A stretch of 46,824 nt of DNA, taken from assembly GCA_017474385.1 (NCBI GenBank), contig JAFVHU010000160.1:1-46824 (forward strand). Direction: 5' to 3'. Both the position numbers and the translations under genes were made by a program. Under the pieces are notes generated by a model. The model worked only from the letters and a program-made list of their open reading frames with translations. It had not been told where the DNA came from and did not search any database. Source of the DNA: Afipia sp. (GTDB lineage Bacteria > Pseudomonadota > Alphaproteobacteria > Rhizobiales > Xanthobacteraceae). Positions 6,272-28,388 of this stretch are shown here, in pieces (position 1 is the stretch's first letter; each line of letters begins with the position of its first letter).

Positions 6272-9200
6272 CTACTCCGCCGCCGCTACCACCTGCTGGG
6301 CACGCCACTGTGCGAGCAGCGCGCGCAGCGCCGCCGGCTTGACCGGCTTGTTGAGCACGACGATGCCGTCTTCGCGTGCGGCATCGCGCACATGCGGGCT
6401 GCGATCCGCAGTGATCAGAATGGCTGGAATTCCATCGCCGAACCGCTGACGAATGTCGCGGATCGCGGCAATGCCGTTGCCGCGGTCGAGATGATAATCG
6501 ACCAGCAATCCGGTCACCCGCTCATTAGTCGCGGCAATGGCCTCAGCGGCGGTCACCGGATCGACAGCGGCGATCACCTTGGCGTCCCAGCCGGTCAACA
6601 GCGTCTTCATGCCGTCGAGAATGGCGCGGTCGTTCTCGATGCAAACGATGAGGGTGCCGCTCATCGGCGCCTTGGACGGTATGTTGGCGCCGGCCACTGT
6701 CGCCGTATGCGTGACGGTCTTTGCAATCGGCATGGTCACCGAGAACCGCGACCCGCCACTGCGGTTCGAATCGACCACGATGCGGTGGTTCAGAACCCGC
6801 GCCAGCCGCTCGACAATCGACAGGCCGAGTCCCAATCCGCGCGCGATCCGGGCACCCTGATCGAGGCGGTGAAACTCCTTGAAGATCTCGGCGCGCTTCG
6901 GAATCGGAATGCCGAGGCCGGTGTCGTAGATCCCGATTTCCAGCGATTTGCCCCTCCGGCGGCATCCGACCAGAACACGTCCTTTGGGCGTGTACTTGAT
7001 GGCGTTCGAGATCAGGTTTTGCAGCAGCCGCCGCAGCAGCACGCGATCGGAGGACACCGCCAGCGAGGAGGGCACGAAGGTGAGCTTCAGCTTTCTTGCC
7101 TTTGCGATCGGCGTGAACTCCACTTCCAGCGATCGCATCAGGTCGCTCATGCGGAAGCTGGAGATCGACGGCGTCATGGCGCCGGAGTCGAGCCGCGAGA
7201 TGTCGAGCAATGCGCCCAGGATTTCCTCGATGGCTTCCAGCGAGTCGTCGATGTTGCCGACCAGACGGGCGTCCTCGCCGCCGTCCTGCCGCTCGACGAG
7301 GCTGGTGACATAAAGCCGCGCCGCATTCAGCGGTTGCAGAATGTCGTGGCTGGCCGCCGCAAGGAAGCGGGTTTTGGAAATGTTGGCTTCCTCGGCGGTG
7401 CTCTTGGCCCGCGCAAGTTCGCTGTTGAGCCGCGTCAGTTCCTCGGTGCGTTCACGCACACGCTTCTCCAGCGTCGCGTTGGCGCGCTCCAGCGCTTCCG
7501 CCGCTTCAAAACTCGGCGTGATGTCGGAGAAGGTGATGACCAGCGCGCCGCCCGGCATGCGGTTGGCGCGGACCTCCACAACCATGTTGCGATCGGTCAG
7601 CCGCTCCAGATAGGGCTCGCCCTCGGTGGTGTACGCAGCCAGTCGTCGTTGCAGCATGACGGGATCGGCATTCTCGTCCTGTCCGTTGCTGCCGATGAAT
7701 TCAAGAATCTCGACCAGCGGAATGCCGATCTGCGAATATTGCGCGGGCAGGTCGAGAATCTCGCCGAACTGCTGGTTCGAGGTGATGAGTTGCAGTTCCG
7801 GATTGAACACCGCGATGCCTTGCCGAACGTGGTTGAGCGCGGTTTGCAGCATCTCGCGATTGAAGTGCAGCGCGGTGTGCGCATCGTCGAGCAGCTTGAG
7901 CGCGGCCTTGGCGGACACTGCACGCTTGCGCAGCAGCAGCGACAGCACAAGCCGCGACGACGCCGCGCCGATTGACGACGCGATCAGATGTTCGGCATGG
8001 CGCAGCAGGCGGAAATCCGCGGGCGCCGCGCGATCGATATTGACGTGGTGGCTGGCAGCGAAGGTTTCGAACGACTGCTGCGCGCGTTCCGGGCCGAAAT
8101 ACTGCGCGACCGTGGTGAGCAGATCCTGCACCGTCACCGTGGTGCGCCAGCGCCGGAAATTCGGCGCGATCGGCGCCAGTTCGTTCGGCACAAACAGATC
8201 GGCCTGAACCCGTTCGATCGATGTCGGCTGGCGCAGTAGCGACAGCACGATATAGGTCAAGAGATTGAGCGAAAGGCTCCAGAAAACGCCGTGAATCAGC
8301 GGCGCCATTTCAGTGCCGAGCAACGCCCGCGGCCGCAGCGCCGCGATGCCGAACAACCCTTCCTTCAGCCAGATCACGCCGCGCGGATCGACGTCGGCGA
8401 AGCTCGGCAGGAACAGCGTGTAGGCCCACACCGCGAAGCCGATCATCATGCCGCCCATGGCGCCGCGTGCGGTCGCGCGCCGCCAGAACAGTCCGCCGAA
8501 AAAGGCCGGTGCGAGCTGGGCGACGGCGGCGAACGACAGCAGGCCGATGGCGGCGAGCTGCGCATTGCCGAGCGCATGATAGTAGAGATACGCCATCGCC
8601 ATGATGGCGAAGATCGCGACGCGGCGCACTTTAAGCAGAAAGCCGCCGAAATTTGCCTTGCCGGCCTGCGCCGCAGGCCGCCGCTTCAACACCAGCGGCA
8701 CCACGATATCGTTCGACACCATGATGGCGAGCGCCACGCATTCCACGATCACCATGGCGGTGGCGGCGGACAGACCGCCGATGAACACGACCACGCTGAG
8801 CCATGTGGCGCCGGCCTGGATCGGCAACGCCAGCACGTACATGTCGCTGTCGGATGCACCGAACGGAAAGGTGACAAGGCCGGCAATCGCGATCGGAATC
8901 ACGAACAGGTTGATCGCGACCAGATACAGCGGAAACAGCCAGCGTGCGCGGCGAACTTCGGCCTCGGTCGAGTTCTCGACAACGCTGACATGGAATTGCC
9001 GCGGCAGCAGCATGATCGCCAGAAACGACAGCAGCGTCATGGCGGCGAAGTTGCCGATCGACGGCGCGGTTTCGATGGCGCGCACCGCCTCCGGCGTCTT
9101 CATGGCGCGATCCCACAGATCGGACGGCCCGAACATCACGAAGGTCACGAACACGCCCGCCGCAATGAAGGCCACCAGCTTGACCAGCGATTCCGTTGCG

Positions 9201-13178: not shown

Positions 13179-13232
13179 CGTCTCGCAATCGTGTTTTTCA
13201 AGGTCCGGCTTAACGCGGCAATCGGTGCCGCG

Positions 13233-13395
13233 CTAGTGTCCCGTATCCGACGTTCGCCTCACTTTGCAGCGTCTTCCGAGCGAACGTCGGATACGAAAGG
13301 ACACTAGCAAACTATAGTTCTAGTGATCCTTCGGTTCTGACATTCGTAAAAGGTGCCGCCGAGAAATGATACGAATGTCAGAACCGGATCACTAG
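13233..13395. repeat. Twin-hairpin CTAGTG/CACTAG repeat, copy A
   Basis: Two adjacent hairpins. Hairpin 1 (13233-13307) has ends CTAGTGTCC / GGACACTAG and an inner 14-bp stem GTATCCGACGTTCG / CGAACGTCGGATAC around a 24-base loop. Hairpin 2 (13320-13395) has ends CTAGTGATCC / GGATCACTAG and an inner 15-bp stem GGTTCTGACATTCGT with its exact complement, around a 23-base loop. A 12-base linker CAAACTATAGTT separates them. Copies B and C at 18057 and 24716 share the layout. It fills the gap between bioB and the metallo-hydrolase gene; both are on the minus strand, so it would be transcribed if they are co-transcribed. Confidence 0.9.
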
Positions 13396-13493
13396 TGTTC
13401 CGGCCAGCCAAAACTCACGTTTTACGAGGCGCGCCGGCATGGTTGCCATGCAGGCAGCCATGCCTTGGTGCTTCCTTGGCGTTTCAAACAGCG

Positions 13494-14579
13494 TCAGGAA
13501 GCGGCTGCGCCGGACACCGTGGCTGCGGCTGGCGTTGCGTCCACATGTGTGTGGTTGTGCGGCTTCGCGTCGTCGAGCTTCGACTTGATGCCGAGGCGAT
13601 CGAGCAGATCGGCGTCGCGCACGGTCTGCGGGTTCTTCGTGGTCAGCAGCACGTCGCCGATGAAGATCGAATTTGCACCGGCCACGAAGCACAGCGCCTG
13701 CAATTCGTCGGTCATGTACTGGCGGCCAGCCGACAGGCGAACGACGCTGCGCGGCATCATGATGCGCGCGACCGCGATCATGCGCACCAGCGCGATCGGA
13801 TCGGGACGCTCGGCGGTGTCGTTGACCGGCACGCCCTTGACCTCGTTCCACATGTTGATCGGAACGCTCTCCGGATGCTCGGGAAGGTTCGCCAGCAGCG
13901 CCAGCATGCCGAGACGGTCATCGACCTGCTCGCCCATGCCGATGATGCCGCCGCAGCAGACCTTGAGGCCGGCTTCGCGTGCAGATGCCAGCGTGTCGAT
14001 GCGATCCTGCATCGTGCGCGTGGTGATGATCTTGCCGTAGAACTCCGGCGAGGTGTCGACATTGTGATTGTAGAAGTCGAGGCCGGCTTCCTGAAGGCGC
14101 TTCGCCTGTGCATCGGTCAGCATGCCGAGCGTGACGCAGGTCTCCATGCCGAGATCCTTCACGGCGCTGACCATGTCGCAGACCTTGTCGAGATCCTTGT
14201 CTTTCGGGTTGCGCCACGCCGCCGCCATGCAGAAGCGTTCTGCGCCGGCTTCCTTGGCGCGCTTCGCCGTGGCCACGACATCGTCGTGATCCATCAGCTT
14301 CGACGCCTTGAGGCCGGTGTCGTACTTGGCGCTCTGCGAGCAGTAACCGCAGTCCTCCGGACAGCCGCCGGTCTTGATGCTGAGCAGGCTCGCGGTCTCG
14401 ACGTGATTGGGATCGAAGTTGCGGCGGTGAATGCTCTGCGCCTGGAAGATCAGATCCGCAAAGGGGAGATCGTACAGCGCCTGCGCTTCCGCGCGGGTCC
14501 AGTCGTTGCGCGGCTCGATCAGCGCATCGCGCCCGACCGACATCCCGCCCTTCACATCCGAACCCGGCACTATGCTCAT
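13494..14579 (-). CDS. bioB: Biotin synthase
   Basis: Encodes 361 residues. The start ATG has AAGGGG seven bases upstream. The radical-SAM cluster motif [13 protein letters not shown] supplies C73, C77 and C80. Other BioB motifs are present: [44 protein letters not shown] and RLSAGRQ with the arginine that binds the [2Fe-2S] cluster. The enzyme inserts sulfur into dethiobiotin as the last step of biotin synthesis. The C-terminus has an extra alanine/histidine-rich tail beyond the core. No other bio genes lie next to it, and I found no BioR-like palindrome in the 185 bases upstream. Confidence 0.97.
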
Positions 14580-14688
14580 GCGCTAACCCCTTGCGTGCGA
14601 AACCTAAAGTCTCGTTCTGGCGGACAGCACGAGATGCTCTGAGGCAACCCGCTTCTTCCATGTCCTGAGAGGTTACCAAGGATCATGA

Positions 14689-14714
14689 GGGCCCAGAAGA
14701 GTCAATCTGGGCCC
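14689..14714 (-). terminator. Hairpin after the chemoreceptor gene, possible terminator
   Basis: A 9-bp perfect stem (GGGCCCAGA / TCTGGGCCC) with an 8-base loop starts about 50 bases past the stop of the chemoreceptor gene on the minus strand and lies upstream of bioB. It has no clear U run, so termination is uncertain. It may instead be a structural boundary element. Confidence 0.5.
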
Positions 14715-14764
14715 CGGCCGCCGGGCGAACCAGCTATGCCTCACGGCATAGCGCATAAACGCAA

Positions 14765-16909
14765 TTATGCAGCCCGGATGTTGAGCAGGAAGGCGTCAAC
14801 TTCAGCGCGCAGCGTATCGGCTTCGTGGCGAAGTTCGTTCGATGCATTCAGCACTTCGCCGGCTGCGGTTCCAGCCTCGCTCGAGGCACGGCTCACGCCG
14901 ACGATGTTGCTCGAGACTTCCTGGGTGCCGCTTGCGGCGTGCTGGATGTTGCGCGCGATCTCGCGGGTCGCCGCACCCTGTTCCTCGACGGCCGCGGCGA
15001 TGGCGGTGGTGACCTCGTTGATCTCGCCGATGGTGGAGCCGATGTTGCGGATGGCGCTGACCGCCGATGCCGTGACGTTCTGCATGCTCGCGATCTGGGT
15101 GCGGATTTCGTCGGTCGCCTTCGCGGTCTGCTCGGCGAGGCTTTTCACTTCCGATGCCACGACCGCGAAACCGCGCCCGGCTTCGCCGGCACGCGCGGCC
15201 TCGATGGTGGCATTGAGCGCGAGCAGGTTGGTTTGCGACGCGATCTCCTGAATCAGATCGACGACGCTGCTGATGCGGTTGGCGTTGTCGGCAAGACCCT
15301 GCATGGTCGTGTCGGTCTTGCCGGCTTCGGTGACGGCGTTGGCGGCGATCTTGGTCGAACTCGTGACCTGACGGCTGATCTCCTGGATCGACGATGACAA
15401 TTCCTCGGTACCGGCGGAGACCGTCTGCACGTTGACCGAAGTTTCTTCGGCAGCCGACGCGACGGTGTTCACCAGCGCGCTGGAATGTTCGGCGGATGTT
15501 GACATGCTCTCCGCCGTCGCTTGCATCACATTGGCGGAGGTCATCAGGCTGTCGAGCGCGGTGCGGACCTTGTCCTCGAAGCTGACGATCTGCTTTTCGA
15601 TGCGCGACGCGCGTTCGGCCTTGGCGAGACGGTCCTGGTCCTGTTCGCTGCTCAGCGTGCGCGAGCGGATCATGCTGTCGCGGAACACTTCCAGCGAGTC
15701 GGCCATGACGGCGATTTCGTCCTGCTGGCGGCCGCGCTTCACTTCGGCATTGAGATCGCCTTCGGACAGGCGGCGCATCACGTCCTGCAGGTTGCCGATG
15801 CGGCCAAGGATGTTGCGGCCGACATAGAGCCAGACGAACAGCGCCGATCCGACCAGCGTGAGCACGCCGAGCGCGAGCATGGTCGTCGTTCCCAGCGTGA
15901 TCGTGTTGTTCGCCCTGGCGGCTGCGGCATCCGTCGCCACCTGCACGTCATCGACCAGCCGCTTGATGCTCATTTCCAGGCCGCGGTTGAGCTTGCCGGT
16001 CTCTTCCAGAATAAGCCGGCCGTAATCGGCGGAATCCAGTTCCTTCTGGCGCAGCTTGAAAAGGCCGTTCTTCTTGTTGCCGAACGCCATCATCTGCGTG
16101 ACGGCGTCCTTCAGCTTGTCGCCGTCGCCGGCATGGCCGAGCGCCTTGAGGGAGATCTCGATGCTGTCGTACGTCACCGAGAATGCATATTCCTGATCGC
16201 TGAGCGTCTCGGCGTTGTTGGCGTTTGCAGCGGCGCTGATGTTGCTCGCGGCGAAATTGACGTCGGCCAGCAGGCTGGCCAGCATATCGACGCCGCGCAT
16301 GGCCTTGATGGCTTCCTTCGGCTCGGCATTCGGATTCACCAGCGCCGAATTGACGGAAGCTTTTGCATCTTCCGCCGCGCTGCTGATGATGTTGACGACG
16401 GCGCTATGGGCGGCGCGGGCGGCCTCGAACTTCTTGTTGTGCTCGGCGGCCAGATCCAGCCGCTCCTTCGCAGCCGCGCGCAGGCTGTTGATGGTGTCGT
16501 CGAGCATTTTGACGTTTTCTTCCAGCGCGGACACGACGCTCGGATCGGCCTTGAGAGTCTTGATCTCCTGAAGCTTCGTCAGCGCCGCGGCCTGAACCTC
16601 TTTCAGGCCCTGGGTGCGGGATTGCAGGGTGCTTTCATCGTCCGAGGCCAGCATCGCGGGACCGCGGGCGGCGAGGCTCTGGCTCAACCCGGACAACTGG
16701 AGACTTGCGCTCAGGCGGGGAATGTTCTGGCTGCTCAGTTCGTTCATCATGCCGCCGAGCTGGCCAAGCAGCAGGCTCGCTCCCGCGCTGATGGCGATCG
16801 CCATGCCGGCGATGACCGCAAAGGCCAGGAAGAGACTCCCCCGGACGCCAAGCTTCAGGCTGGGCAGTTTGAAACGAAACAGATTTCCGACCTTGAACCG
16901 CAAAGCCAT
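14765..16909 (-). CDS. Methyl-accepting chemotaxis protein
   Basis: Encodes 714 residues. A basic N-terminus precedes transmembrane helix 1 (LFLAFAVIAGMAIAISAGASLLLG, about 26-50). A mostly helical periplasmic region of about 290 residues follows, then transmembrane helix 2 (about 345-368, TTMLALGVLTLVGSALFVWLYV), a HAMP domain (IGNLQDVMRRLSEGDLNAEV) and the signalling domain. The conserved hairpin tip is present as EIASQTNLLALNATIEAARAGEAGRGF. There is no CheR-binding pentapeptide at the C-terminus (ends FLLNIRAA). The ligand is unknown. The helical sensor domain is of the four-helix-bundle kind. No che genes are nearby, so it is an orphan receptor. Confidence 0.93.
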   Translation of the reverse strand: MALRFKVGNLFRFKLPSLKLGVRGSLFLAFAVIAGMAIAISAGASLLLGQLGGMMNELSSQNIPRLSASLQLSGLSQSLAARGPAMLASDDESTLQSRTQGLKEVQAAALTKLQEIKTLKADPSVVSALEENVKMLDDTINSLRAAAKERLDLAAEHNKKFEAARAAHSAVVNIISSAAEDAKASVNSALVNPNAEPKEAIKAMRGVDMLASLLADVNFAASNISAAANANNAETLSDQEYAFSVTYDSIEISLKALGHAGDGDKLKDAVTQMMAFGNKKNGLFKLRQKELDSADYGRLILEETGKLNRGLEMSIKRLVDDVQVATDAAAARANNTITLGTTTMLALGVLTLVGSALFVWLYVGRNILGRIGNLQDVMRRLSEGDLNAEVKRGRQQDEIAVMADSLEVFRDSMIRSRTLSSEQDQDRLAKAERASRIEKQIVSFEDKVRTALDSLMTSANVMQATAESMSTSAEHSSALVNTVASAAEETSVNVQTVSAGTEELSSSIQEISRQVTSSTKIAANAVTEAGKTDTTMQGLADNANRISSVVDLIQEIASQTNLLALNATIEAARAGEAGRGFAVVASEVKSLAEQTAKATDEIRTQIASMQNVTASAVSAIRNIGSTIGEINEVTTAIAAAVEEQGAATREIARNIQHAASGTQEVSSNIVGVSRASSEAGTAAGEVLNASNELRHEADTLRAEVDAFLLNIRAA

Positions 16910-17044
16910 AATTACGAATCCCCCGATCCCGTAAAATCACGCGCGGGCGGAGTATCGTGATGCCTGGTTAAAAATTTCGGGAGCTGGGGGCGTTTTCTGC
17001 CAAAAATTTCGTGCAGGGCTGCAATGCGAGGCTTTTGAGAGGGC

Positions 17045-17119
17045 TGGTGCTGCCAGACAGGATTGAACTGTCGACCTCTCCATTACCAATGGAGTGCTCT
17101 ACCACTGAGCTACGGCAGC
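17045..17119 (-). tRNA. tRNA-Thr (anticodon GGT)
   Basis: On the minus strand the sequence starts GCTGCCGTAGCTCAGTGG and folds into a normal cloverleaf. The acceptor stem is GCTGCCG / TGGCAGC (with one G-T pair), and the D-loop contains AGCTCAG. The anticodon stem CTCCA / TGGAG holds the loop TTGGTAA, giving anticodon GGT (Thr). The T-loop is GTTCAATC. Discriminator A is followed by an encoded CCA at 17045-17047. It lies between the chemoreceptor and an NTF2-like gene. Confidence 0.95.
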
Positions 17120-17260
17120 GAACGCCAGACGAGAAAGAGCCAGAACCGTACCAGGTACGTGAATCAGCTGAAAAGCCTCTAAAGGCGCGCGTTCCTTTGC
17201 CATAAGGCAACTGGCGGTGCAAGCACTGAGCGGCCTGTTCTTGGTCCCCGGCAGCGGAAC

Positions 17261-17710
17261 TCAGGCAGATGCCGCCTTGGGAGGCTTGTATTTGGCCAGC
17301 TCCGGGCCGATCCGGGCACCCAGCTGGGTGCTCAATGCCTCCAGGGCCTTGAAGGGCCGGATCATCACCTCGAATTCGATGATTTTTCCGGCGGAATCGA
17401 ATTTCACCAGATCGATGCCATTTAATTGCAGGTCGCCGATATTGGCGCTGAATTCCAGCGCCACATCGTGCGTCCCGGCCACGAAGGTGCGGTGATAGCG
17501 GAAATTCTCGAAAATCTGCACGACCGCGCCGAGGATCAGCACACTGGCGGGGCGTCCCGGAATCGGCAGATGCACGAACGGCGAACGGAACACGGTGGTT
17601 TCCGCAAAAAGCGGCCGCAGCACGTCCTCGCTCTTGGTTTCAACGAAGCGATGCCAGCCCTTGAGTGTCTCCTGCGCTGAAGGCGCAAGCCCCTGTGCGT
17701 CAGCCGTCAT
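17261..17710 (-). CDS. NTF2-like / SnoaL-like small protein
   Basis: Encodes 149 residues from the ATG at 17710, preceded by GGGGAG at a suitable distance; a longer in-frame start at 17794 has no such site. The sequence pattern (TLKGWHRFVETKSEDVLRPL, TVFRSPFVHLP, then alternating strands ending in GIDLVKFDSAGKIIEFEVMIRPFKALEAL) is typical of the cone-shaped NTF2/SnoaL fold with its final beta-sheet. Members include isomerases, hydrolases and ligand carriers, so no reaction can be assigned. It is divergent from the small gene at 17806. Confidence 0.75.
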   Translation of the reverse strand: MTADAQGLAPSAQETLKGWHRFVETKSEDVLRPLFAETTVFRSPFVHLPIPGRPASVLILGAVVQIFENFRYHRTFVAGTHDVALEFSANIGDLQLNGIDLVKFDSAGKIIEFEVMIRPFKALEALSTQLGARIGPELAKYKPPKAASA

Positions 17711-17805
17711 CACATTCTCCCCGTCACATTGCCTGCCGGATTCGATATAAAATAGTTCTTCACACCGGCGATACCCGGTCAAGGAAACCTGCAAGCAGGC
17801 CTGTC

Positions 17806-18009
17806 ATGACGGACGACGTCAAAAATGAGCGCAACGCCAAATCGGCCCGCAATGAGCGGCTGAAATCGGCGCTGCGCGACAATTTGAAACGGCGGAAGTC
17901 GCAGGCCCGCGGCCGCGCCGGAATGGCGATCGTCACGCCCGATGACGATGCGAAGGCGCGGGACCATGCATCGGGCACGGGCTCACATCGGCGCGACGGC
18001 GACACCTGA
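17806..18009 (+). CDS. Small basic hypothetical protein
   Basis: Encodes 67 residues starting MTDDVKNERNAKSARNERLK. The sequence is strongly charged and helical in its first two thirds (SALRDNLKRRKSQARGRAGM), with a disordered tail. I recall similar short proteins in Bradyrhizobium relatives, but no function is known. The run of arginines and lysines would suit nucleic acid contact, which is only a guess. It is divergent from the NTF2-like gene, and the twin-hairpin copy B begins 48 bases after its stop. Confidence 0.55.
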   Translation: MTDDVKNERNAKSARNERLKSALRDNLKRRKSQARGRAGMAIVTPDDDAKARDHASGTGSHRRDGDT

Positions 18010-18056
18010 CCAGCCGCCTTCATCCATCGCTTGATTGTTTGGCGGGCAGACACGAT

Positions 18057-18220
18057 CTAGTGTCCCGTATCCGACGTTCGCTTTGCTCCGCAGCGTCTTC
18101 CGAGCGAACGTCGGATACGAAAGGACATTAGAAAACTTATGATTCTAGTGATCCTTTGATTCTGACATTCGTAAAAGTGCCTGCGAAAGATCCGTACGAA
18201 TGTGAGAACCGGATCACTAG
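18057..18220. repeat. Twin-hairpin CTAGTG/CACTAG repeat, copy B
   Basis: Hairpin 1 (18057-18131) has the same inner stem as copy A (GTATCCGACGTTCG), with one change in the right outer arm (GGACATTAG). Hairpin 2 (18145-18220) has ends CTAGTGATCC / GGATCACTAG and an inner stem GATTCTGACATTCGT / ACGAATGTGAGAACC, which carries two mismatched or wobble positions. The linker is AAAACTTATGATT. The loops also resemble copy A (CAGCGTCTTCCGAG in loop 1). It lies between the small gene ending at 18009 and the flavoprotein gene. Confidence 0.9.
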
Positions 18221-18283
18221 CTTGATGAAGGCGATCTCCAACGAGGGATATCGCTGATCTGCTCGAACATAAGGATGCGTGAG

Positions 18284-18742
18284 ATGGCGACGGACCAGGC
18301 AGCAGCAATTGGGACGGGCGCCCCGCAAACCGACGCCGCGCACGCGGCATTTCCCCGGTTCGAGCAGACGTTTCCGAAATTGACGGAAACAGAAATCGGC
18401 CGCATGCGCCGGTTCGGCGAGGTGCGTCAGCATAAGGACGGCGAATTGCTGTTCGAGTCCGGCAAGGTCGGCCCCGGCATGTTCGTTATTCTCTCGGGAA
18501 ATGTCGCCATCAGCCAGCGCGACGGCCTGGGTCATGTCACGCCGGTGATCGAGCAGGGACCGGGCCAGTTTCTGGCCGAGATCGGACAGCTTTCTGGCCG
18601 CCGTGCGCTGGTGGATGGCACCGCCGAGGGTGACGTTGAGACGCTGCTGATCCCGCCGCCCAATCTGCGCGCGCTGCTTGTGGCCAAGCCGATCTCGGCG
18701 AGCGCATCATGCGCGCACTCATTTTGCGCCGTGTTGCCCTGA
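18284..18742 (+). pseudogene. 5' part of a frameshifted cNMP-binding/thioredoxin-reductase-like flavoprotein
   Basis: The frame from the ATG at 18284 (AAGGA eight bases upstream) encodes a cyclic-nucleotide-binding domain: GEVRQHKDGELLFESGKVGPGMFVILSGNVAI and GQFLAEIGQLSGRRALVDGTAEGDVETLLIPP. At about 18686 the frame breaks. One missing base after GTGGCC would restore VAEADLGERIMRALILRRV and join the domain to the flavoprotein frame that continues to 19995. Without it, this frame stops at 18742. It is either a real disabling deletion or a sequencing error. The intact form is a known alphaproteobacterial architecture (cNMP domain plus TrxR-like flavoprotein). Confidence 0.75.
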
Positions 18743-19995
18743 TCCAGGCCGGTCTCGGAGGCCCGGTGCTGATCGGCTCGCCGTCGCTGGGCGACGTCGT
18801 GCGGCTGCAAGGCTTTTTGTCGCGCAACGGTATTCCCCATCATGTGCTTGATCCCGCCAACGACACGGACGCAGCAGATCTGATTGCGCGCTACTCGCCG
18901 TCACCCACTGATCTGCCGCTGGTGGTGGCCCCGGACGGCACCGTCCTGCGCAATCCCAGCGAAGTCGATCTTGCCTATGCGATGGGAATGATCGGCGGCC
19001 CGATCCGGGACAAGCTCTATGACGTCGCCGTCGTCGGCGGCGGCCCCGCCGGACTTGCGACCGCGGTGTATGCGGCGTCCGAAGGATTGTCGGTGGCGGT
19101 GCTCGATGCACGCCACTTCGGCGGCCAGGCCGGCGCCAGCGCCCGCATAGAAAATTATCTCGGATTCCCGACCGGTATCTCCGGGCAGGCGCTTGCCGGG
19201 CGGGCTTACAATCAGGCGCAGAAGTTCGGCGCGGACCTGATGATTCCGGTCGAGGCGAAATCGCTCGACTGCTCGAAAAGCGGCGGTGCATTCGGGCTCA
19301 CGACCGAATGCGGTCATTTCCTGAAGGCGAAATCCATTGTCGTTGCCAGCGGTGCGCGCTACCGGCGCCCCACCATCGAGAATCTCGACAAGTTCGAGGG
19401 ACGCGGCGTCTGGTACTGGGCATCGCCGATCGAGGGGAAGCTCTGTTCGCAGCAGGAAATCATTCTGGTCGGCGGCGGCAACTCCGCAGGGCAGGCTGCG
19501 GTGTTTCTCTCTAGCCACGCCAGCAAGGTGCGGATGATGATCCGTAGCGGCGGTCTCGCCGACAGCATGTCGCGCTATCTGATCGACCGCATCATGGCGA
19601 CGCCGAACATCGAACTGATGATCCATACCGAGATCGTCAGGCTGGAGGGCGCGGAAGGCGGGCTCGAGCGGGTGCACTGGCGCAATCGCCGCACCGGCAT
19701 CGAGACGGCGGGCGACATCCGCAACGTGTTTCTGTTTGTCGGCGCCGATCCTGCAACCTCATGGCTGAAAGGTTGCGGCGTTGAGCTTGATCGCACGGGT
19801 TTCGTGGTGACCGGTTCGCAGTGTGAGGAAGGCAAGCCGGTCTCGGGGCTGGAGACATCGGTGCCGGGTGTCTTCGCCGTCGGCGATGTGCGTTCGGGCT
19901 CGGTCAAGCGCATGGGCGGGGCGATCGGCGAAGGTGCGCAGGTCGTGGCCGCGCTGCATGGTTTTCTTGGCGACAAACCGGCGCAGCCTCATTAG
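18709..19995 (+). CDS. Thioredoxin-reductase-like FAD/NAD(P) oxidoreductase lacking the CxxC (3' part of a frameshifted fusion)
   Basis: This frame holds the end of the cNMP domain, a thioredoxin-like segment (LIGSPSLGDVVRLQGFLSRNGIPHHVLD), then the flavoprotein. The FAD site is VAVVGGGPAGLATAVYAASEG, GGQAGASARIENYLGFP is typical of TrxR, the NAD(P) site is EIILVGGGNSAGQAAVFL, and GVFAVGDVRSGSVKRMGGAIGEGAQVV closes the FAD site. The redox CATC motif is replaced (GVWYWASPIEGKLC), so it cannot act as a classical thioredoxin reductase. The ATG at 18709 lies inside conserved sequence and is probably not the natural start. It precedes the UBP zinc-finger gene at 20038. Confidence 0.8.
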   Translation: MRALILRRVALIQAGLGGPVLIGSPSLGDVVRLQGFLSRNGIPHHVLDPANDTDAADLIARYSPSPTDLPLVVAPDGTVLRNPSEVDLAYAMGMIGGPIRDKLYDVAVVGGGPAGLATAVYAASEGLSVAVLDARHFGGQAGASARIENYLGFPTGISGQALAGRAYNQAQKFGADLMIPVEAKSLDCSKSGGAFGLTTECGHFLKAKSIVVASGARYRRPTIENLDKFEGRGVWYWASPIEGKLCSQQEIILVGGGNSAGQAAVFLSSHASKVRMMIRSGGLADSMSRYLIDRIMATPNIELMIHTEIVRLEGAEGGLERVHWRNRRTGIETAGDIRNVFLFVGADPATSWLKGCGVELDRTGFVVTGSQCEEGKPVSGLETSVPGVFAVGDVRSGSVKRMGGAIGEGAQVVAALHGFLGDKPAQPH

Positions 19996-20037
19996 CCTGT
20001 GAACCGCCGGAGAACTCTCTCACCAAGAGACCATGAC

Positions 20038-20340
20038 ATGCCCTGCAAGCACATCGCGGAGATCAAGGACGTCACTCCGAGTGCGCTGGGCTGCGAGGAA
20101 TGCCTGAAGACCGGCAGCGTCTGGCTGCACTTGCGGATCTGCCGGACCTGCGGCCATGTCGGCTGCTGCGACGATTCGCCGAACCGGCACGCCACCAAAC
20201 ATTTCCGCGCCACGCAGCATCCCGTTATCGAAGGTTATGATCCGCCGGAGGGGTGGGGCTGGTGCTACGTCGACGAAATCATGTTCGACCTGTCGAAGCG
20301 CAAGACCCCGCATAACGGTCCGATCCCGCGTTATGATTGA
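20038..20340 (+). CDS. UBP-type zinc finger protein
   Basis: Encodes 100 residues from ATG (MPCKHIAEIKDV). Cysteines and histidines at C3, H5, C19, C22, C35, C38, H40, C43, H51, H55 and H61 follow the ZnF-UBP pattern known from ubiquitin hydrolases and HDAC6; bacterial versions lack ubiquitin partners and their ligand is unknown. It begins 42 bases after the flavoprotein stop. This zinc finger is often found beside or fused to such flavoproteins in alphaproteobacteria (recollection), which suggests a joint redox or sensing role. Confidence 0.85.
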   Translation: MPCKHIAEIKDVTPSALGCEECLKTGSVWLHLRICRTCGHVGCCDDSPNRHATKHFRATQHPVIEGYDPPEGWGWCYVDEIMFDLSKRKTPHNGPIPRYD

Positions 20341-20372
20341 ACTGCGCCTGCCGATGATCTGAGCTTGCCAAA

Positions 20373-20404
20373 TCTGTGTGTTGCCAGGTCTGTGTGTTGC
20401 CAGG
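20373..20404. repeat. Two perfect tandem copies of a 16-bp unit
   Basis: TCTGTGTGTTGCCAGG occurs twice in direct tandem (20373-20388 and 20389-20404), with a partial related unit (TTGCCAAA) just before. It lies in the 82-base gap upstream of the hydrolase start at 20423, so a change in copy number would alter promoter or leader spacing. Confidence 0.85.
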
Positions 20405-20422
20405 TCCTCTTGTTATTTCAGC

Positions 20423-21352
20423 ATGCAGTATTTTCGACGGGCCATTCGCGGCGCGGCCTGCGCCGCGGCAGTGGCGGCATCCATCGTTCTCGCGTCATTC
20501 GGTCCCGCGGCTGCGCAGTCGGCGCCGCAGAGCCGCTCCGCCGACGTGAATGGCGTCAAGCTGAACTATCTGATCGCCGGCGAGGGCGATCCTGTCGTGC
20601 TGCTGCACGGTTACGCGCAAACCAGCCACATGTGGCGGCCGCTGTTTCCCGGACTTGCGAACCAGCACACGGTGATCGCGCCGGATCTGCGCGGGTTCGG
20701 CAAATCCGATGCGCCTGAGGGCGGCTACACCAAGAAGCAAATGGCGCAGGACATCCACGCGCTGGTGAAGAGCCTCGGATACACCAAGGTCAAGATCGTC
20801 GGCCACGACATCGGACTGATGGTCGCCTATGCCTATGCGGCGCAGTATCCGGCCGAGGTCGATCGCATCGTGCTGATGGATGCCTTCCTGCCCGGCGTCG
20901 GCGACTGGAAGAACGTCTGGCTGCTGCGCGATCTCTGGCACTTCCATTTCTACGGCAAGACGCCGCTGGCGCTGGTGACTGGCCGCGAACGGATCTATCT
21001 CGAACATTTCTGGAATGATTTCGCCGCCAACCCGGCAAAATCGATCTCTCAGAAGGATCGTAAGTTCTACGCCAAGGCCTATGCGCAGCCGGGACACATG
21101 AAGGCGGGGATGGAAGTCTTCCGCGCGTTCGAAAAGGATGCCGACGATTTTGCCGGCTTTGCCAAGACCAGGCTGCCGATGCCGATGCTCGTGCTTTCCG
21201 GCGAGAAGGCGGGAGGGCTTTTCCTGATCGAACAGGGCAAGCTGGTCGCGACCAATGTCGAGGGTGTGATCGTGAAAGGCTCCGGACACTGGCTGATGGA
21301 GGAGGCGCCCGGTCAGGTAATTCCGAAGCTGGTGGATTTTCTCAATCGCTGA
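20423..21352 (+). CDS. Exported alpha/beta hydrolase of the epoxide hydrolase/dehalogenase type
   Basis: Encodes 309 residues from the ATG at 20423. The N-terminus is a signal peptide (FRRAIRGAACAAAVAASIVL, cleavage near AAAQS). The alpha/beta-hydrolase fold shows the oxyanion motif LLHGYAQTSHMW, the elbow VGHDIGLMVAYAYA and the terminal histidine in GSGHWLMEE. The nucleophile is an aspartate, as in epoxide hydrolases and haloalkane or haloacetate dehalogenases. The natural substrate is unknown. Export to the periplasm is unusual for the soluble bacterial members but not rare. Two 16-bp tandem repeats precede it. Confidence 0.85.
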   Translation: MQYFRRAIRGAACAAAVAASIVLASFGPAAAQSAPQSRSADVNGVKLNYLIAGEGDPVVLLHGYAQTSHMWRPLFPGLANQHTVIAPDLRGFGKSDAPEGGYTKKQMAQDIHALVKSLGYTKVKIVGHDIGLMVAYAYAAQYPAEVDRIVLMDAFLPGVGDWKNVWLLRDLWHFHFYGKTPLALVTGRERIYLEHFWNDFAANPAKSISQKDRKFYAKAYAQPGHMKAGMEVFRAFEKDADDFAGFAKTRLPMPMLVLSGEKAGGLFLIEQGKLVATNVEGVIVKGSGHWLMEEAPGQVIPKLVDFLNR

Positions 21353-21455
21353 TCAGCACGAAAATTTGTGAGCGCGCCGCGTGCGGAAATGGAACCTCTG
21401 TTGCGCTGCCCTGCGTATGATGTAGCCTTGGATTCATTCTAAACGGGCGCGCACC

Positions 21456-21941
21456 ATGATTTTGGGCATGTCACTAGCGGGTTTCACGGTCCTTCATCTC
21501 ATCATCTGCATGATCGCCATTGGCCTCGGCTTCGTGGTGGTGGGCGGGATGCTCGCCTCGAACCGGCTGCCCGGCTGGACGCTCTGGTTTCTCGTCCTGA
21601 CCATCCTCACCAATGCGACCGGCTTTCTGTTTCCCTTCACCAAGCTGCTGCCGTCGCACATGGTCGCGCTGATCTCGCTGGTGCTGCTGGCGATCGCGGT
21701 CTACGCGCTCTACGCAAAAGGCCTCGCCGGTATCTGGCGCACGGTTTATGTGGTCACCGCGATGCTCGCGCTCTGGTTCAATGTGTTCGTCCTGATCGCG
21801 CAGTCGTTCCAGAAGGTCGCGTTGCTGAACGTTTATGCGCCGACCGGAGCCGAGCCGCCATTTGCAATCACCCAGGGCATCGTGCTGCTGTTTTTCATCG
21901 GCCTGATCATCCTCGGCATCAGGCGTTTCAAAACGGCTTAA
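21456..21941 (+). CDS. Four-helix membrane protein of unknown function
   Basis: Encodes 161 residues with four clear hydrophobic helices: VLHLIICMIAIGLGFVVVGG, LWFLVLTILTNATGFLFPF, VALISLVLLAIAVYALYA plus VYVVTAMLALWFNVFVLIA, and IVLLFFIGLIILGI. The loops are short. No conserved catalytic motif is visible and I do not recognise a named family. The start could also be the ATG at 21468. It lies about 100 bases after the alpha/beta hydrolase and 24 bases before the SDR gene, so the last two may be co-transcribed. Confidence 0.7.
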   Translation: MILGMSLAGFTVLHLIICMIAIGLGFVVVGGMLASNRLPGWTLWFLVLTILTNATGFLFPFTKLLPSHMVALISLVLLAIAVYALYAKGLAGIWRTVYVVTAMLALWFNVFVLIAQSFQKVALLNVYAPTGAEPPFAITQGIVLLFFIGLIILGIRRFKTA

Positions 21942-21964
21942 CGCACGTCTAAACGGGAGCGTCG

Positions 21965-22630
21965 ATGAAAGTCATTGTCTTCGGCGCGACCGGCATGGTC
22001 GGGCAGGGCGTTCTGCGCGAATGCCTGCGCGATGGCGATGTGACGGAGGTGTTGACCGTCGGCCGCAGCGCCACCGGTCAGCAGCATCCGAAACTGCGCG
22101 AGCTCGTGCACAAGGACTTTCTCGATTTCTCAGCCGTTGAAAAAGACATCACGGGCTATGACGCCTGCTTCTTCTGTCTCGGCGTCTCCTCGCTCGGACT
22201 GGACGAGGAGCGTTATCGCCATCTGACCTACGACATCACACTGGCGGCGGCGCGGCCGCTGGCGCGGCTCAATCCCGGCATGACTTTCGTCTATGTCACC
22301 GGCGCAAGCACCGACAGCACCGAGCAGGGCCGCATGATGTGGGCGCGCGTCAAAGGCAAGACCGAGAACGACCTGCTCAAGCTGCCGTTCAAGGCGGCCT
22401 TCATGTTCCGTCCCGGTGCGATCCAGCCGCTGCACGGCGTCCGGTCGAAAACGGCGTGGGTTCAGGCGCTCTATGTCATGACCGGGCCGCTGCTGAGTTT
22501 CCTGCATCAGGTCGCGCCGAACTATGTCACCACCACCGAGGAACTCGGCCGCGCCATGCTGAGCGTTGCCAAGCGCGGCTATCCGAAACCGATCCTTGAG
22601 ATGGAAGACATCCACAAGGCCGGGGCCTGA
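21965..22630 (+). CDS. NAD(P)-binding atypical SDR / epimerase family protein
   Basis: Encodes 221 residues. The N-terminal Rossmann motif is VIVFGATGMVGQGVLREC, followed by VGRS and a CFFCLGVSS strand. The region FVYVTGASTDSTEQGRMMWARVKGKTENDLL holds a Thr/Ser and Lys but no YxxxK, as in the atypical NAD(P)-binding proteins related to HTATIP2/TIP30. The substrate is unknown. It is separated by only 24 bases from the membrane protein gene and precedes murA by 176 bases. Confidence 0.8.
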   Translation: MKVIVFGATGMVGQGVLRECLRDGDVTEVLTVGRSATGQQHPKLRELVHKDFLDFSAVEKDITGYDACFFCLGVSSLGLDEERYRHLTYDITLAAARPLARLNPGMTFVYVTGASTDSTEQGRMMWARVKGKTENDLLKLPFKAAFMFRPGAIQPLHGVRSKTAWVQALYVMTGPLLSFLHQVAPNYVTTTEELGRAMLSVAKRGYPKPILEMEDIHKAGA

Positions 22631-22806
22631 TCGCATGTTGGGCCGGGCGGCCGGAAAGCCCTCTGTCCCCGCCCAACCGACACAATTCGAGCGATTTTTC
22701 AGGTATTAAGCTGAAGCGCCGGGGTTCTTGGGGCGTCCGGCGCGCGGTTTCCACCTCCACCGAAACGCGCTAAAAGCCATTTTATCCGCAACAGGGCAGG
22801 TTTCGC

Positions 22807-24096
22807 ATGGATCGCATTCGCATTGTCGGCGGCAATAAACTCAACGGCACCATTCCGATTTCCGGCGCGAAGAACGCGGCTCTGCCGCTGATGATCGCAA
22901 GCCTGCTCACCGATGAGACGCTGATTCTCGACAACGTGCCGCGCCTGGCCGACGTCGCGCAGCTTCAGCGCATTCTCGGCAATCATGGCCTCGACATCAT
23001 GTCGAAGGGCAAGCGCCCGGGCGACCATGAGTATCAGGGCCAGACGCTGCATATTTCCGCGGCCAACATCATCGACACCACCGCTCCCTATGAGCTGGTC
23101 TCGAAGATGCGCGCCAGCTTCTGGGTGATCGCGCCGCTGCTCGCGCGGATGAAGGAAGCCAAGGTGTCGTTGCCCGGCGGCTGCGCCATCGGCACGCGCC
23201 CTGTCGATTTGTTGATCATGGCGCTGGAGAAGCTCGGCGCGGAATTGCAGATCGACGGCGGCTACGTGATCGCGAAAGCGCCCGGCGGGCTTGTCGGCGC
23301 TGAGATCGATTTCCCCAAGGTCACGGTCAGCGGGACTCATGTGGCGTTGATGGCGGCGACGCTGGCGAAAGGCACGACGGTCATCAAGAACGCGGCGTGC
23401 GAGCCCGAGATCGTCGATGTCGCCGACTGTCTCAACAAGATGGGTGCGAAGATTTCCGGCGCCGGCACGACGCGGATCGTAATCGAGGGCGTCAAGAAGC
23501 TGCACGGTGCGCGGCACACGGTGCTGCCGGACCGGATCGAGACCGGCACCTATGCCATGGCGGTGGCGATGACCGGCGGCGATGTCCAACTCGCGGGCGC
23601 GCGGCCTGAACTGCTGCAATCGGCGCTCGACGTGCTGACGGAAGCCGGCGCCACCATCACGCCGAACAACGAAGGCATCCGCGTTGCGCGCAACGGTGCG
23701 GGTATCACCCCGGTCAAGGTCACGACCGCGCCGTTCCCGGGCTTCCCGACCGATCTTCAGGCGCAGCTCATGGCGCTGATGGCCTGCGCCAAGGGCTCGT
23801 CGCACATCACCGAAACAATTTTTGAAAACCGTTTCATGCATGTTCAGGAACTGGCGCGGTTCGGTGCGCGTATCTCCCTCGATGGCGAGACCGCGATCAT
23901 CGACGGCATCGCCAAGCTCAAGGGCGCGCCGGTGATGGCGACGGATTTGCGCGCCTCGGTGTCGCTGGTGATTGCGGCGCTGGCGGCGGAAGGCGAAACC
24001 ACCGTCAATCGCGTCTATCATCTCGATCGCGGCTTCGAGCGGCTCGAGGAAAAACTGTCTGCCTGCGGCGCGACCATCGAACGCATCAGCGGGTAA
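22807..24096 (+). CDS. murA: UDP-N-acetylglucosamine 1-carboxyvinyltransferase
   Basis: Encodes 429 residues. It catalyses transfer of enolpyruvate from PEP to UDP-GlcNAc, the first committed step of peptidoglycan synthesis in the cytoplasm. The N-terminal motif is [12 protein letters not shown]. The fosfomycin-sensitive active-site cysteine is C126 in [43 protein letters not shown] and [12 protein letters not shown] complete the family pattern. It starts the run murA-DUF2948-hisD-UPF0262-phosphatase-maf-yacG, all on the plus strand. Confidence 0.97.
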
Positions 24097-24102
24097 TGCA
24101 GG

Positions 24103-24149
24103 GCATGATCCCGAAAAGTGGAAGCCGGTTTTCGGAAAAGATCATGCCC
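24103..24149. repeat. About 46-bp palindromic interspersed repeat, copy 2
   Basis: Begins GCATGATCCCGAAAAGTGG and ends GGAAAAGATCATGCCC, so its outer ends are inverted repeats of GCATGATC. It is the inverted counterpart of 9804-9849. It sits between the murA stop (24096) and the next start (24172), inside the likely operon, and would be transcribed as a hairpin. Confidence 0.8.
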
Positions 24150-24171
24150 ACTTGAAACAACGGCGGGGGCC

Positions 24172-24654
24172 ATGTCTCAGAACAAAACGGCTCAGCAGAA
24201 TGTATCCCGGCGCAAGCTGGCCGCGCTGGATGAAGACGATCTCGCGGTGATCTCCGCCCACATCCAGGATGCGGCGGTGGTCGCGGGCGACATCCTCTGG
24301 CGGCAGAACGAGAAGCGTCTGGTCGTCGCCATGCGGCGGATAGACTGCGAGGATATCCTCGCCGGTGATTGCGTTCCGCGCCGCCTGATCTCGGCGCTGC
24401 GTTTCGACCGCGTGCTGTCGTGCCAGTCGCGCGAGATCGACATGACGGCCCCGGAACTCCCGCTGACCCTGCTCGGGCTGGAATTCCATCCCGGCAAGAA
24501 ACCGGGCGGCCAGGTGCTGCTGCTGTTCGCTACCGGCGGGGTGCTCAGGCTCGAGGTCGAGTGCCTCGAATGCGAACTGGCCGATCTGGGCCCGGACAAC
24601 TCGGACGGCGATCTGGCGGCAGAGCCCAATCTGCCTGCGCACACAGACATTTAG
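24172..24654 (+). CDS. DUF2948 family protein
   Basis: Encodes 160 residues from the ATG at 24172 (MSQNKTAQQNVSRRKLAALDED), with a run of G just upstream. The core LDEDDLAVISAHIQDAAVVAGDI and the closing RLEVECLECELADLGP match the DUF2948 family of alphaproteobacteria, which is placed between murA and hisD. Function is unknown. The motif FLLFATGG-like segment and a Cys-rich LECEL stretch are conserved in the family. The gap to hisD contains the twin-hairpin copy C. Confidence 0.88.
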   Translation: MSQNKTAQQNVSRRKLAALDEDDLAVISAHIQDAAVVAGDILWRQNEKRLVVAMRRIDCEDILAGDCVPRRLISALRFDRVLSCQSREIDMTAPELPLTLLGLEFHPGKKPGGQVLLLFATGGVLRLEVECLECELADLGPDNSDGDLAAEPNLPAHTDI

Positions 24655-24715
24655 CAACCAATCCGGGCGGTCCCGCTCGCGGTTTCATTCCAGGAATGTT
24701 ATGGGTTGACGGTGA

Positions 24716-24880
24716 CTAGTGTGGCGGTTCGCAAGTCCGCAACATTTGTCAGCACGTCCATTTAGCGGACTTGCGAACCAAAGCCACACTAGAAACTATA
24801 ATTCCTAGTGTCCTTTTGAATCCGAAGTTCGCTATGGAGCGTGCCGCAAAATGAGGCGAACTTCGGATTCAGGACACTAG
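24716..24880. repeat. Twin-hairpin CTAGTG/CACTAG repeat, copy C (diverged stems)
   Basis: Hairpin 1 (24716-24792) has ends CTAGTGTGGC / GCCACACTAG and a perfect 15-bp inner stem GGTTCGCAAGTCCGC / GCGGACTTGCGAACC. Hairpin 2 (24805-24880) has ends CTAGTGTCCT / AGGACACTAG and a perfect 15-bp inner stem GAATCCGAAGTTCGC / GCGAACTTCGGATTC. The linker is AAACTATAATT. The stems differ from copies A and B but every change is matched on the other arm. It ends 10 bases before the first possible hisD start. Confidence 0.9.
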
Positions 24881-28312: not shown

Positions 28313-28388
28313 GCCCAGGTAGCTCAGTTGGTAGAGCATGCGACTGAAAATCGCAGTGTCGGTGGTTCGATCCCGCCCCTGGGCACCA
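28313..28388 (+). tRNA. tRNA-Phe (anticodon GAA)
   Basis: A complete cloverleaf. The acceptor stem is GCCCAGG / CCTGGGC, the D arm contains AGCTCAGTTGGTAGAGC, the anticodon stem GCGAC/TCGC-like holds loop CTGAAAA giving GAA (Phe), and the T-loop is GGTTCGATCC. Discriminator A and an encoded CCA end at 28388. The last 12 bases of the acceptor region (CCTGGGCACCAT, 28378-28389) recur at 29576-29587 beyond the toxin-antitoxin pair. Confidence 0.97.

What the first reader, a model, noticed from the sequence alone, without database searches (positions are those of the whole stretch)
13233..24880. A family of about 164-bp twin-hairpin elements whose stems change but keep pairing
Copies A (13233-13395), B (18057-18220) and C (24716-24880) all have two hairpins of 75-77 bases, each bounded by CTAGTG and CACTAG, joined by a linker near AAACTATAATT. 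The inner stems of C (GGTTCGCAAGTCCGC, GAATCCGAAGTTCGC) differ from those of A and B (GTATCCGACGTTCG, GGTTCTGACATTCGT), yet each arm matches its own partner. The loops keep short shared words (GTGCC..G.AAA in hairpin 2). Paired change in stems with conserved linker and loops implies selection or copying for structure. CTAG is usually rare in bacteria, yet marks all ends. Candidate roles are a REP-like element moved by a REP-associated transposase, a structured RNA or a protein-binding site.
Basis: seen in the sequence. Interest (0 to 1): 0.75.

Follow-up and report, generated by a model that had tools for sequence, protein, structure and literature searches.

The report
CTAG-targeted mobile twin-hairpin DNA elements
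The three twin hairpins are copies of a small, gene-less mobile DNA element found in several to dozens of copies per genome in this bacterial genus and in scattered other alphaproteobacteria; it sits at the rare sequence CTAG (often a gene's stop codon), its stem arms change together, and the enzyme that moves it is unknown.

Summary
All 69 twins paired from that list share one plan: hairpin, 10-15 nt linker, hairpin, bulges facing the linker. Each twin joins two different hairpins; three subfamilies keep their partners in 72 of 78.

At 4 of 7 sites some relative has a single CTAG and no element (one of these by eye); 3 of 7 show only near-matches. So the twin probably inserts at CTAG and leaves CTAG at both ends. 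In 16 of 77 non-coding twins the end's TAG is a stop codon.

Stem arms change together: 126 matched double, 105 single changes; about 3 matched doubles expected. Leftover mismatches are not G-U biased on the gene strand, favouring arm-to-arm DNA copying over RNA selection. REP-associated transposase is absent from 27 of 29 genus genomes; IS630 and DDE_Tnp_1 are missing from several high-copy ones. The mobiliser is unidentified. I judge it a new variant of REPIN/MITE-like elements.

The parts
13233..13307 (+). Copy A, hairpin 1 (subfamily I, type a; AAA bulge at 13296-13298 on the linker side)
13308..13319 (+). Copy A, AT-rich linker CAAACTATAGTT
13320..13395 (+). Copy A, hairpin 2 (subfamily I, type b)
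13233..13236 (.). CTAG at the left end of A. L029 (MAG Afipia) has a single CTAG here and no element, with an indel of about 12 bases just to its right; L035 has CCAG at about the same place
13392..13395 (.). CTAG at the right end of A
18057..18131 (+). Copy B, hairpin 1 (subfamily I, type a); inner end mutated to CATTAG
18132..18144 (+). Copy B, linker AAAACTTATGATT
18145..18220 (+). Copy B, hairpin 2 (subfamily I, type b). L028 has a single CTAG and no element in the corresponding gap; matched by eye on about 10 bases, not confirmed by the alignment
24716..24792 (+). Copy C, hairpin 1 (subfamily II, type b)
24793..24804 (+). Copy C, linker AAACTATAATTC
24805..24880 (+). Copy C, hairpin 2 (subfamily II, type a); ends 10 nt before the first ATG of the hisD-like frame (24891). 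L028 and L035 have TCTGG and L029 TGTGG at the empty site
21937..21952 (.). Empty site in the window (CTAA) for a subfamily III twin present in L028 at 6960-7126

Best explanation
A non-autonomous mobile DNA element of about 165 bp whose unit is a head-to-head pair of two different bulged hairpins. SHOWN: every copy examined in this genome is a twin or the remnant of one; copies sit at places where relatives have no element; in part of these places a relative has a single CTAG where this genome has CTAG at both ends; stems are conserved while loops vary. INFERRED: a trans-acting recombinase recognises the pair (as folded single-stranded hairpins, or as the roughly 25-bp outer arms acting as terminal inverted repeats), moves it, and inserts it at CTAG. 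Because CTAG is about ten times rarer in coding than in non-coding DNA here and also occurs as (C)TAG stop codons, this rule delivers the element to harmless places, and the element's own CTAG keeps the stop codon. INFERRED: after insertion one arm of a hairpin is often recopied from the other (template switching in the palindrome), so stem changes appear as matched pairs without selection on an RNA. The enzyme is not identified.
For: Unit and number: 80 twins plus one truncated; all 69 listed twins in -+ orientation, linker 12 nt in 36, 13 in 16, 11 in 14, other in 3. Partner fidelity 72 of 78. Empty sites, single CTAG in a relative: A (L029), B (L028, by eye), T1 (1 of 5 aligned relatives, G001), T2 (2 of 9, G012 and G017); near-matches only: C (0 of 3), T3 (0 of 1), the L028 element (0 of 1). 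Nested twins sharing a CTAG in L202, and near-identical copies in G318. Stop codon: 16 of 77 non-coding twins (15 C-TAG, one A-TAG) against 16 of 76 non-coding CTAG sites outside twins; public annotation agrees in 8 Roseibium/Labrenzia records of one orthologous site, in Bradyrhizobium CB82, and for a single hairpin in A. vitis. Arm coupling: 126 matched double, 105 single, 6 unmatched double changes in 3759 cells of 152 hairpins; terminal tetramers both CTAG 79, both changed alike 41, one changed 14, both changed differently 10, of 144 (8 with a gap dropped). One clearly and one weakly inverted loop of 132; in the clear one arms and bulge are in place.
Against: No transposase gene flanked by these hairpins was found. 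Three tested transposase classes are missing from several high-copy genomes, so present-day mobility there is unproven. Among 66 own-genome twins compared, no pair within a subfamily is more than 90-91% identical. At 3 of 7 sites no relative has exact CTAG, and at T1 and T2 most aligned relatives have other tetramers. Only 30 of the matched doubles are unique within their type, so part of the coupling count is inherited. Twins avoid gaps between convergent genes more than CTAG sites do (2 of 75 against 12 of 63, p = 0.002), which CTAG targeting does not explain; this rests on my own gene finder. Conservation of the stem sequence across copies cannot come from arm copying alone.
Confidence: 0.7

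Rival explanations
1. A REPIN: a REP doublet moved by a REP-associated tyrosine transposase (RAYT, HUH/Y1) through single-stranded hairpins.
For: Inverted doublet as the unit, as described for REPINs (passages of PMC3116915). Among the 20 other-genus genomes of the family (G029-G048), a Y1 hit occurs in 5 of 11 with elements and 0 of 9 without.
Against: PF01797 absent from 26 of 29 genus genomes that all carry elements; RAYT profile hits only G003 and G019 in the genus; no twin at the 12 Y1 loci read. REPs are 20-40 bp with GTAG or CGTC tags (PMC3733652, start of abstract and passages); these hairpins are about 76 nt with CTAG at both feet.
Confidence: 0.06
2. A MITE of a DDE insertion sequence that targets TA in CTAG/YTAR (IS630/Tc1-mariner-like or IS5-like), whose outer arms are its terminal inverted repeats, the parent being lost from most genomes. 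This is a concrete version of the best explanation.
For: Outer arms are un-bulged, similar at both ends and about 25 bp; ends read CTAG-TG...CA-CTAG, so a TA or a CTAG duplication both fit. IS711 of Brucella duplicates TA in YTAR (passages of PMC2266754); IS630-derived MITEs are known (passage of PMC2817692).
Against: G001, G004, G006, G012, G015, G024 and G026 have 30 to at least 59 listed hairpins but no PF13358 and no PF01609 match at E 0.001. In G318 the listed outer-arm matches suggested no pair at insertion-sequence distance; about 100 of its 146 matches were listed and I read them by eye. Other DDE families were not tested.
Confidence: 0.33
3. A family of structured regulatory RNAs whose base pairing is under selection in the transcript.
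For: Strong covariation; stems 0.88-0.94 and loops 0.51-0.68 mean pairwise identity; small conserved words in the loops.
Against: Few G-U cells outside one sliding column (9 of 1671 against 14 in that column); leftover mismatches on the gene strand A-C 21 to G-U 10; matched doubles per hairpin similar in divergent (0.78) and tandem (0.86) gaps; both orders occur relative to genes (31 to 17, p = 0.06); no Rfam family at gathering score. No transcript data were available.
Confidence: 0.08
4. Chromosomal protein-binding or regulatory sites kept by selection for a host function such as upstream control or nucleoid binding.
For: Stem sequence, not only pairing, is conserved; 73 of 75 classifiable twins adjoin at least one gene start, and convergent gaps are avoided.
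Against: Sites are not conserved between relatives: the three twins of one 19-kb stretch are absent from the relatives whose sites aligned (5, 9 and 1). The stop-codon share follows CTAG availability. Subfamily stems differ between genera.
Confidence: 0.12

Closest known systems
REPINs / BIMEs with RAYTs (REP superfamilies GTAG and CGTC; passages of PMC3116915, PMC2817692, PMC3733652)
   Same: High-copy intergenic palindromes, inverted doublet as the mobile unit, lineage-specific subfamilies.
   Different: Hairpins about 76 nt, CTAG at both feet of both hairpins, two different hairpins per unit, insertion at CTAG, no RAYT in most host genomes of the genus.
MITEs of IS630/Tc1-mariner and IS5 families (Correia, RUP)
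   Same: Short, gene-less, terminal inverted repeats, target containing TA.
   Different: Two complete hairpins in one element, each end having its own inverted copy inside; no parent insertion sequence found.
Bru-RS1/2 of Brucella (103-106 bp; passages of PMC2267715, PMC10800456, PMC2266754)
   Same: Palindromic intergenic family in Hyphomicrobiales; reported hot spot for IS711, which targets YTAR.
   Different: Shorter; 35-40 copies in the older literature.
RIME of Sinorhizobium/Rhizobium (J Bacteriol 1995; paper not held; seen only in citations and passages of PMC2573895 and PMC2873474)
   Same: Palindromic intergenic mosaic elements in rhizobia.
   Different: Length recalled as about 106-109 bp. 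No Sinorhizobium plasmid is named among the blastn matches, weak evidence against identity; I did not check which Sinorhizobium plasmids the collection holds.
Br-REP1 and Br-REP2 of Bradyrhizobium (passages of PMC5082802)
   Same: Palindromic repeats in 3' untranslated regions of a related genus.
   Different: Printed consensus sequences are shorter and show neither the CTAG feet nor these stems.
Double-hairpin elements of fungal mitochondria (search listing only)
   Same: Mobile double hairpins in intergenic DNA, by recollection with compensated stems.
   Different: Mitochondrial, much smaller by recollection, no CTAG rule known to me.

Membership tests
REPIN/RAYT system | Inverted doublet as the unit | tested here: met
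   69 of 69 listed twins head-to-head; 10 of 11 leftovers also twins, one truncated
REPIN/RAYT system | Cognate RAYT (Y1) gene in the genome, often flanked by the repeats | tested here: not met
   Absent from 26 of 29 genus genomes by PF01797 and 27 of 29 by RAYT profile; no twins at 12 Y1 loci read
REPIN/RAYT system | 20-40 bp palindrome tagged GTAG or CGTC | tested here: not met
   About 76 nt, CTAG feet
MITE | Short element without coding capacity, high copy number | tested here: met
   About 165 bp, 80 twins located
MITE | Terminal inverted repeats | tested here: met
   Outer arms of about 25 bp, similar but not identical at the two ends
MITE | Target-site duplication | tested here: met
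   T2: CTAG at both filled ends, single CTAG in G012 and G017; A and B similar with the reservations given; 3 of 7 sites only near-matches
MITE | Derivation from an identifiable insertion sequence | tested here: inconclusive
   No parent by arm pattern in G318, partial list; PF13358 and PF01609 absent from several high-copy genomes
IS200/IS605-type single-strand transposition | Strand-specific hairpins with a target tetranucleotide read by pairing with a guide | not testable with these tools
   The inner CTAG could act as guide for the outer CTAG; no biochemical data
Rfam structured RNA | Match at gathering score | tested here: not met
   Only two tRNAs in the window; sub-threshold matches only, best Termite-flg E 3e-4 at copy A
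RIME / Bru-RS | Sequence identity to the published repeats | not tested
   Published sequences not available here; only indirect plasmid searches

The most novel reading that the evidence does not exclude
A previously undescribed class of alphaproteobacterial selfish elements: obligate heterodimers of two hairpins, mobilised by a recombinase of a kind not yet linked to small repeats, which use the rarity of CTAG in coding DNA and its presence in stop codons as a built-in safe-harbour rule, and whose palindromes are kept perfect by arm-to-arm templating.
Probability: 0.27. Interest if true: 0.82.

Novelty: new variant of a known kind. Interest (0 to 1): 0.6.

Why it matters
The family gives a natural experiment on two open points. 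First, how short palindromic repeats keep perfect stems: many matched two-arm changes, few intermediates and an inverted loop can be set against template-switch predictions (PMC8794818, outline and abstract read). Second, how a mobile element avoids damage: a target tetramer that is rare in genes and coincides with stop codons. The lack of the three tested transposase classes in closed genomes that hold dozens of hairpins makes the enzyme a well-defined target to find.

Tried and rejected
RAYT hypothesis: Pfam PF01797, a ten-protein RAYT alignment and 12 Y1 loci; the best model score near them was E 0.08. Rejected as the general mobiliser in the genus.

Parent insertion sequence: unpaired hairpins were first taken as possible transposon ends, but ten of the eleven leftovers are twins with mutated ends and the last is truncated. 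An outer-arm search in G318 and blastp of twin-flanking frames of G183, G318 and G260 against the own genome's showed no recurring family that I took for a transposase; the matched frames were not annotated by profile. PF13358 and PF01609 are not universal.

Target duplication as the cause of matching terminal tetramers: rejected, because tetramers match within a hairpin (57 both changed, 12 and 4 one changed, 79 neither; gaps counted as change) more than between the two outer ends of a twin, which are also associated, less strongly (23 both, 12 and 11 one, 30 neither, p = 0.001).

Loop hypermutation: not needed, since recent copies in G318 differ little in their loops. Phage records gave no match to copy C, the only copy tried. 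Six stem strings searched in papers: in the 20 of 109 papers listed only the 9-base string CTAGTGTCC occurred, in papers on unrelated subjects. That I found no description of the family rests, in an open-licence library.

Reductions before counts: one search typed 78 of 80 twins (C160:79554 and C161:2036 not fetched; truncated L022 left out). One search used 76 of 78 (two with both arms diverged) and set aside 41 gap cells. One search used 66 of 78. Of the six twins that broke partner fidelity four have a strongly diverged arm and two (L138, L146) look like mixed or intermediate forms, as does L018. Gene context uses a home-made codon-usage gene finder, which probably mis-called the gene left of copy B. 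Against the pattern: the reversed control found 31 against 78. On re-checking, the empty-site evidence was stated more cautiously and the main confidence lowered from 0.72 to 0.70, the novel case from 0.28 to 0.27.
Full report
WHAT IS THERE. Each hairpin has a 9-10 bp foot beginning CTAGTG, a bulge of usually 3 nt on one arm, a 15-16 bp inner stem and a loop of about 20 nt; the two hairpins of a twin are joined by an AT-rich linker with the bulges facing it. The window lies in a 4.48-Mb, 162-contig genome (84% complete) whose hisD is closest to Afipia MAGs (96% and 89% protein identity).

HOW MANY. An exact-end pattern finds 78 hairpins (the reversed-pattern control finds 31, so that pattern alone is not specific). 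A covariance model from 67 aligned hairpins gives 150 listed hits, the cap. After removing one duplicate, 149 hairpins form 69 twins and 11 leftovers. Re-searching the leftovers shows ten twins with decayed ends, one truncated twin, and one further degenerate twin. That is 80 twins plus one truncated, a lower bound.

ARCHITECTURE. All 69 listed twins are head-to-head; linkers are 10-15 nt. Outer arms fall into six types that pair as three heterodimers, I, II and III (a+b each), in 72 of 78 twins, in either orientation. Of the six exceptions four have a strongly diverged arm and two look mixed or intermediate. The same plan with other stems occurs in G183, G318 and G260, on Aminobacter, Martelella, Rhizobium and Ochrobactrum plasmids, in Roseibium/Labrenzia plasmids, and in Sphingobium, so the family reaches Sphingomonadales. 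Some single hairpins exist there too (Sphingobium, Sphingopyxis, A. vitis).

MOBILITY. Relatives provide seven insertion sites without the element. Single CTAG: T2 in 2 of 9 aligned relatives (G012, G017) and T1 in 1 of 5 (G001), cleanly aligned; A in L029, with a 12-base indel just right of the CTAG, while L035 has CCAG; B in L028, by eye on short flanking identity, not confirmed by the alignment. Near-matches only: C (TCTGG or TGTGG, 0 of 3), T3 (CTAAG, 0 of 1), and the L028 twin's site in the window (CTAA). In L202 one twin ends where another begins, sharing a CTAG. The three twins of the 19-kb stretch L020 are missing from the relatives whose sites aligned (5, 9 and 1). G318 has near-identical copies; the own genome does not (best pair 90-91% among 66 twins).

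WHERE IT SITS. With a simple gene finder (378 genes), 78 twins are 48 tandem, 25 divergent, 2 convergent, 1 inside a gene and 2 at contig edges. In 16, the TAG at the element's end is the stop codon of the neighbouring gene, 15 of them C-TAG. Outside twins, 102 CTAGs divide into 60 intergenic, 26 coding and 16 stop codons, although coding DNA is 4.5 times longer. Among non-coding sites the stop-codon share is the same for twins (16 of 77) and CTAGs (16 of 76); one of 78 twins is in a gene against 26 of 102 CTAGs. Public annotation agrees in part: the CDS stop overlaps the element's CTAG in 8 Roseibium/Labrenzia records (one orthologous site), in Bradyrhizobium CB82 and, for a single hairpin, in A. 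vitis; Aminobacter, Martelella and Sphingopyxis do not show it. Twins are scarcer in convergent gaps than CTAG sites are (2 of 75 against 12 of 63), which I cannot explain; two of the plasmid copies do lie in convergent gaps (Roseibium, Martelella).

ARM COUPLING. In 3759 stem cells of 152 hairpins there are 126 matched double changes, 105 single changes and 6 unmatched doubles; independence predicts about 3 matched doubles. Thirty of the matched doubles are unique within their type, so the rest may be partly inherited. At the terminal tetramer, 79 hairpins have CTAG at both feet, 41 the same changed tetramer at both, 14 a change at one and 10 different changes, of 144. The two outer ends of a twin are associated less strongly, so the target duplication does not explain it. 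Mismatches left on the gene strand are not enriched for G-U (10 G-U, 21 A-C, 26 other), and matched doubles are about as common in divergent as in tandem gaps. Of 132 loops one is clearly and one weakly inverted; in the clear case arms and bulge are in place. These patterns are those expected of template switching between inverted-repeat arms (PMC8794818 abstract; PMC8604942, start of abstract). Eight orthologous Roseibium copies differ too little to decide, and the differences I saw there are one-sided or in loops. Stem conservation across copies (0.88-0.94 against loops 0.51-0.68) still needs a recognition constraint.

ENZYME. Y1_Tnp is absent from 26 of 29 genus genomes, RAYT from 27 of 29, and 12 Y1 loci carry no twins. 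PF13358 and PF01609 are each absent from several closed or near-complete genomes with many elements, for example G012, G015 and G006. I saw no transposase recurring beside twins in distant genomes (by blastp only). The mobiliser is therefore an untested family, a lost one, or a host enzyme.

VERDICT. A mobile, CTAG-targeted, heterodimeric twin-hairpin element: like REPINs and MITEs in behaviour, not a member of the RAYT-REP system by test, MITE membership incomplete for want of a parent. No description was found in the searches listed, in an open-licence library only.

Noticed in passing
L212-L217, L219-L221, L223 (G003, G019, G031, G036, G040, G042, G044, G059): RAYT-like proteins of about 170-190 aa that score only 22-28 bits against PF01797 but below E 1e-89 with their own alignment, by construction; no twin nearby.
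   Followed up: partly
L202 from about 3132 (G318:C29:4132); L273 from about 306: A further hairpin type beginning CTAGTGCAC, forming a second twin nested at the CTAG of another twin in G318, and a related-looking hairpin in A. vitis.
   Followed up: no
window and own-genome loci: CTAG is about ten times rarer per base in coding than in non-coding DNA: 26 in 319 kb against 60 in 71 kb, outside twins.
   Followed up: partly
L160 2021-2186: Second hairpin carries an inverted loop with arms and bulge unchanged, a possible template-switch footprint.
   Followed up: partly
L130 3917-4075: A type Ib hairpin with its loop and part of its stem deleted beside a nearly intact type Ia hairpin.
   Followed up: no
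window 13208-13313 (-): Sub-threshold match of copy A hairpin 1 to the Rfam family Termite-flg (32.7 bits, gathering score 40).
   Followed up: no
window 17048-17119 (-) and 28313-28385 (+): Two tRNA genes at gathering score.
   Followed up: no
own genome, 78 twins: Avoidance of gaps between convergent genes (2 of 75), opposite to what I recall for REPs.
   Followed up: partly
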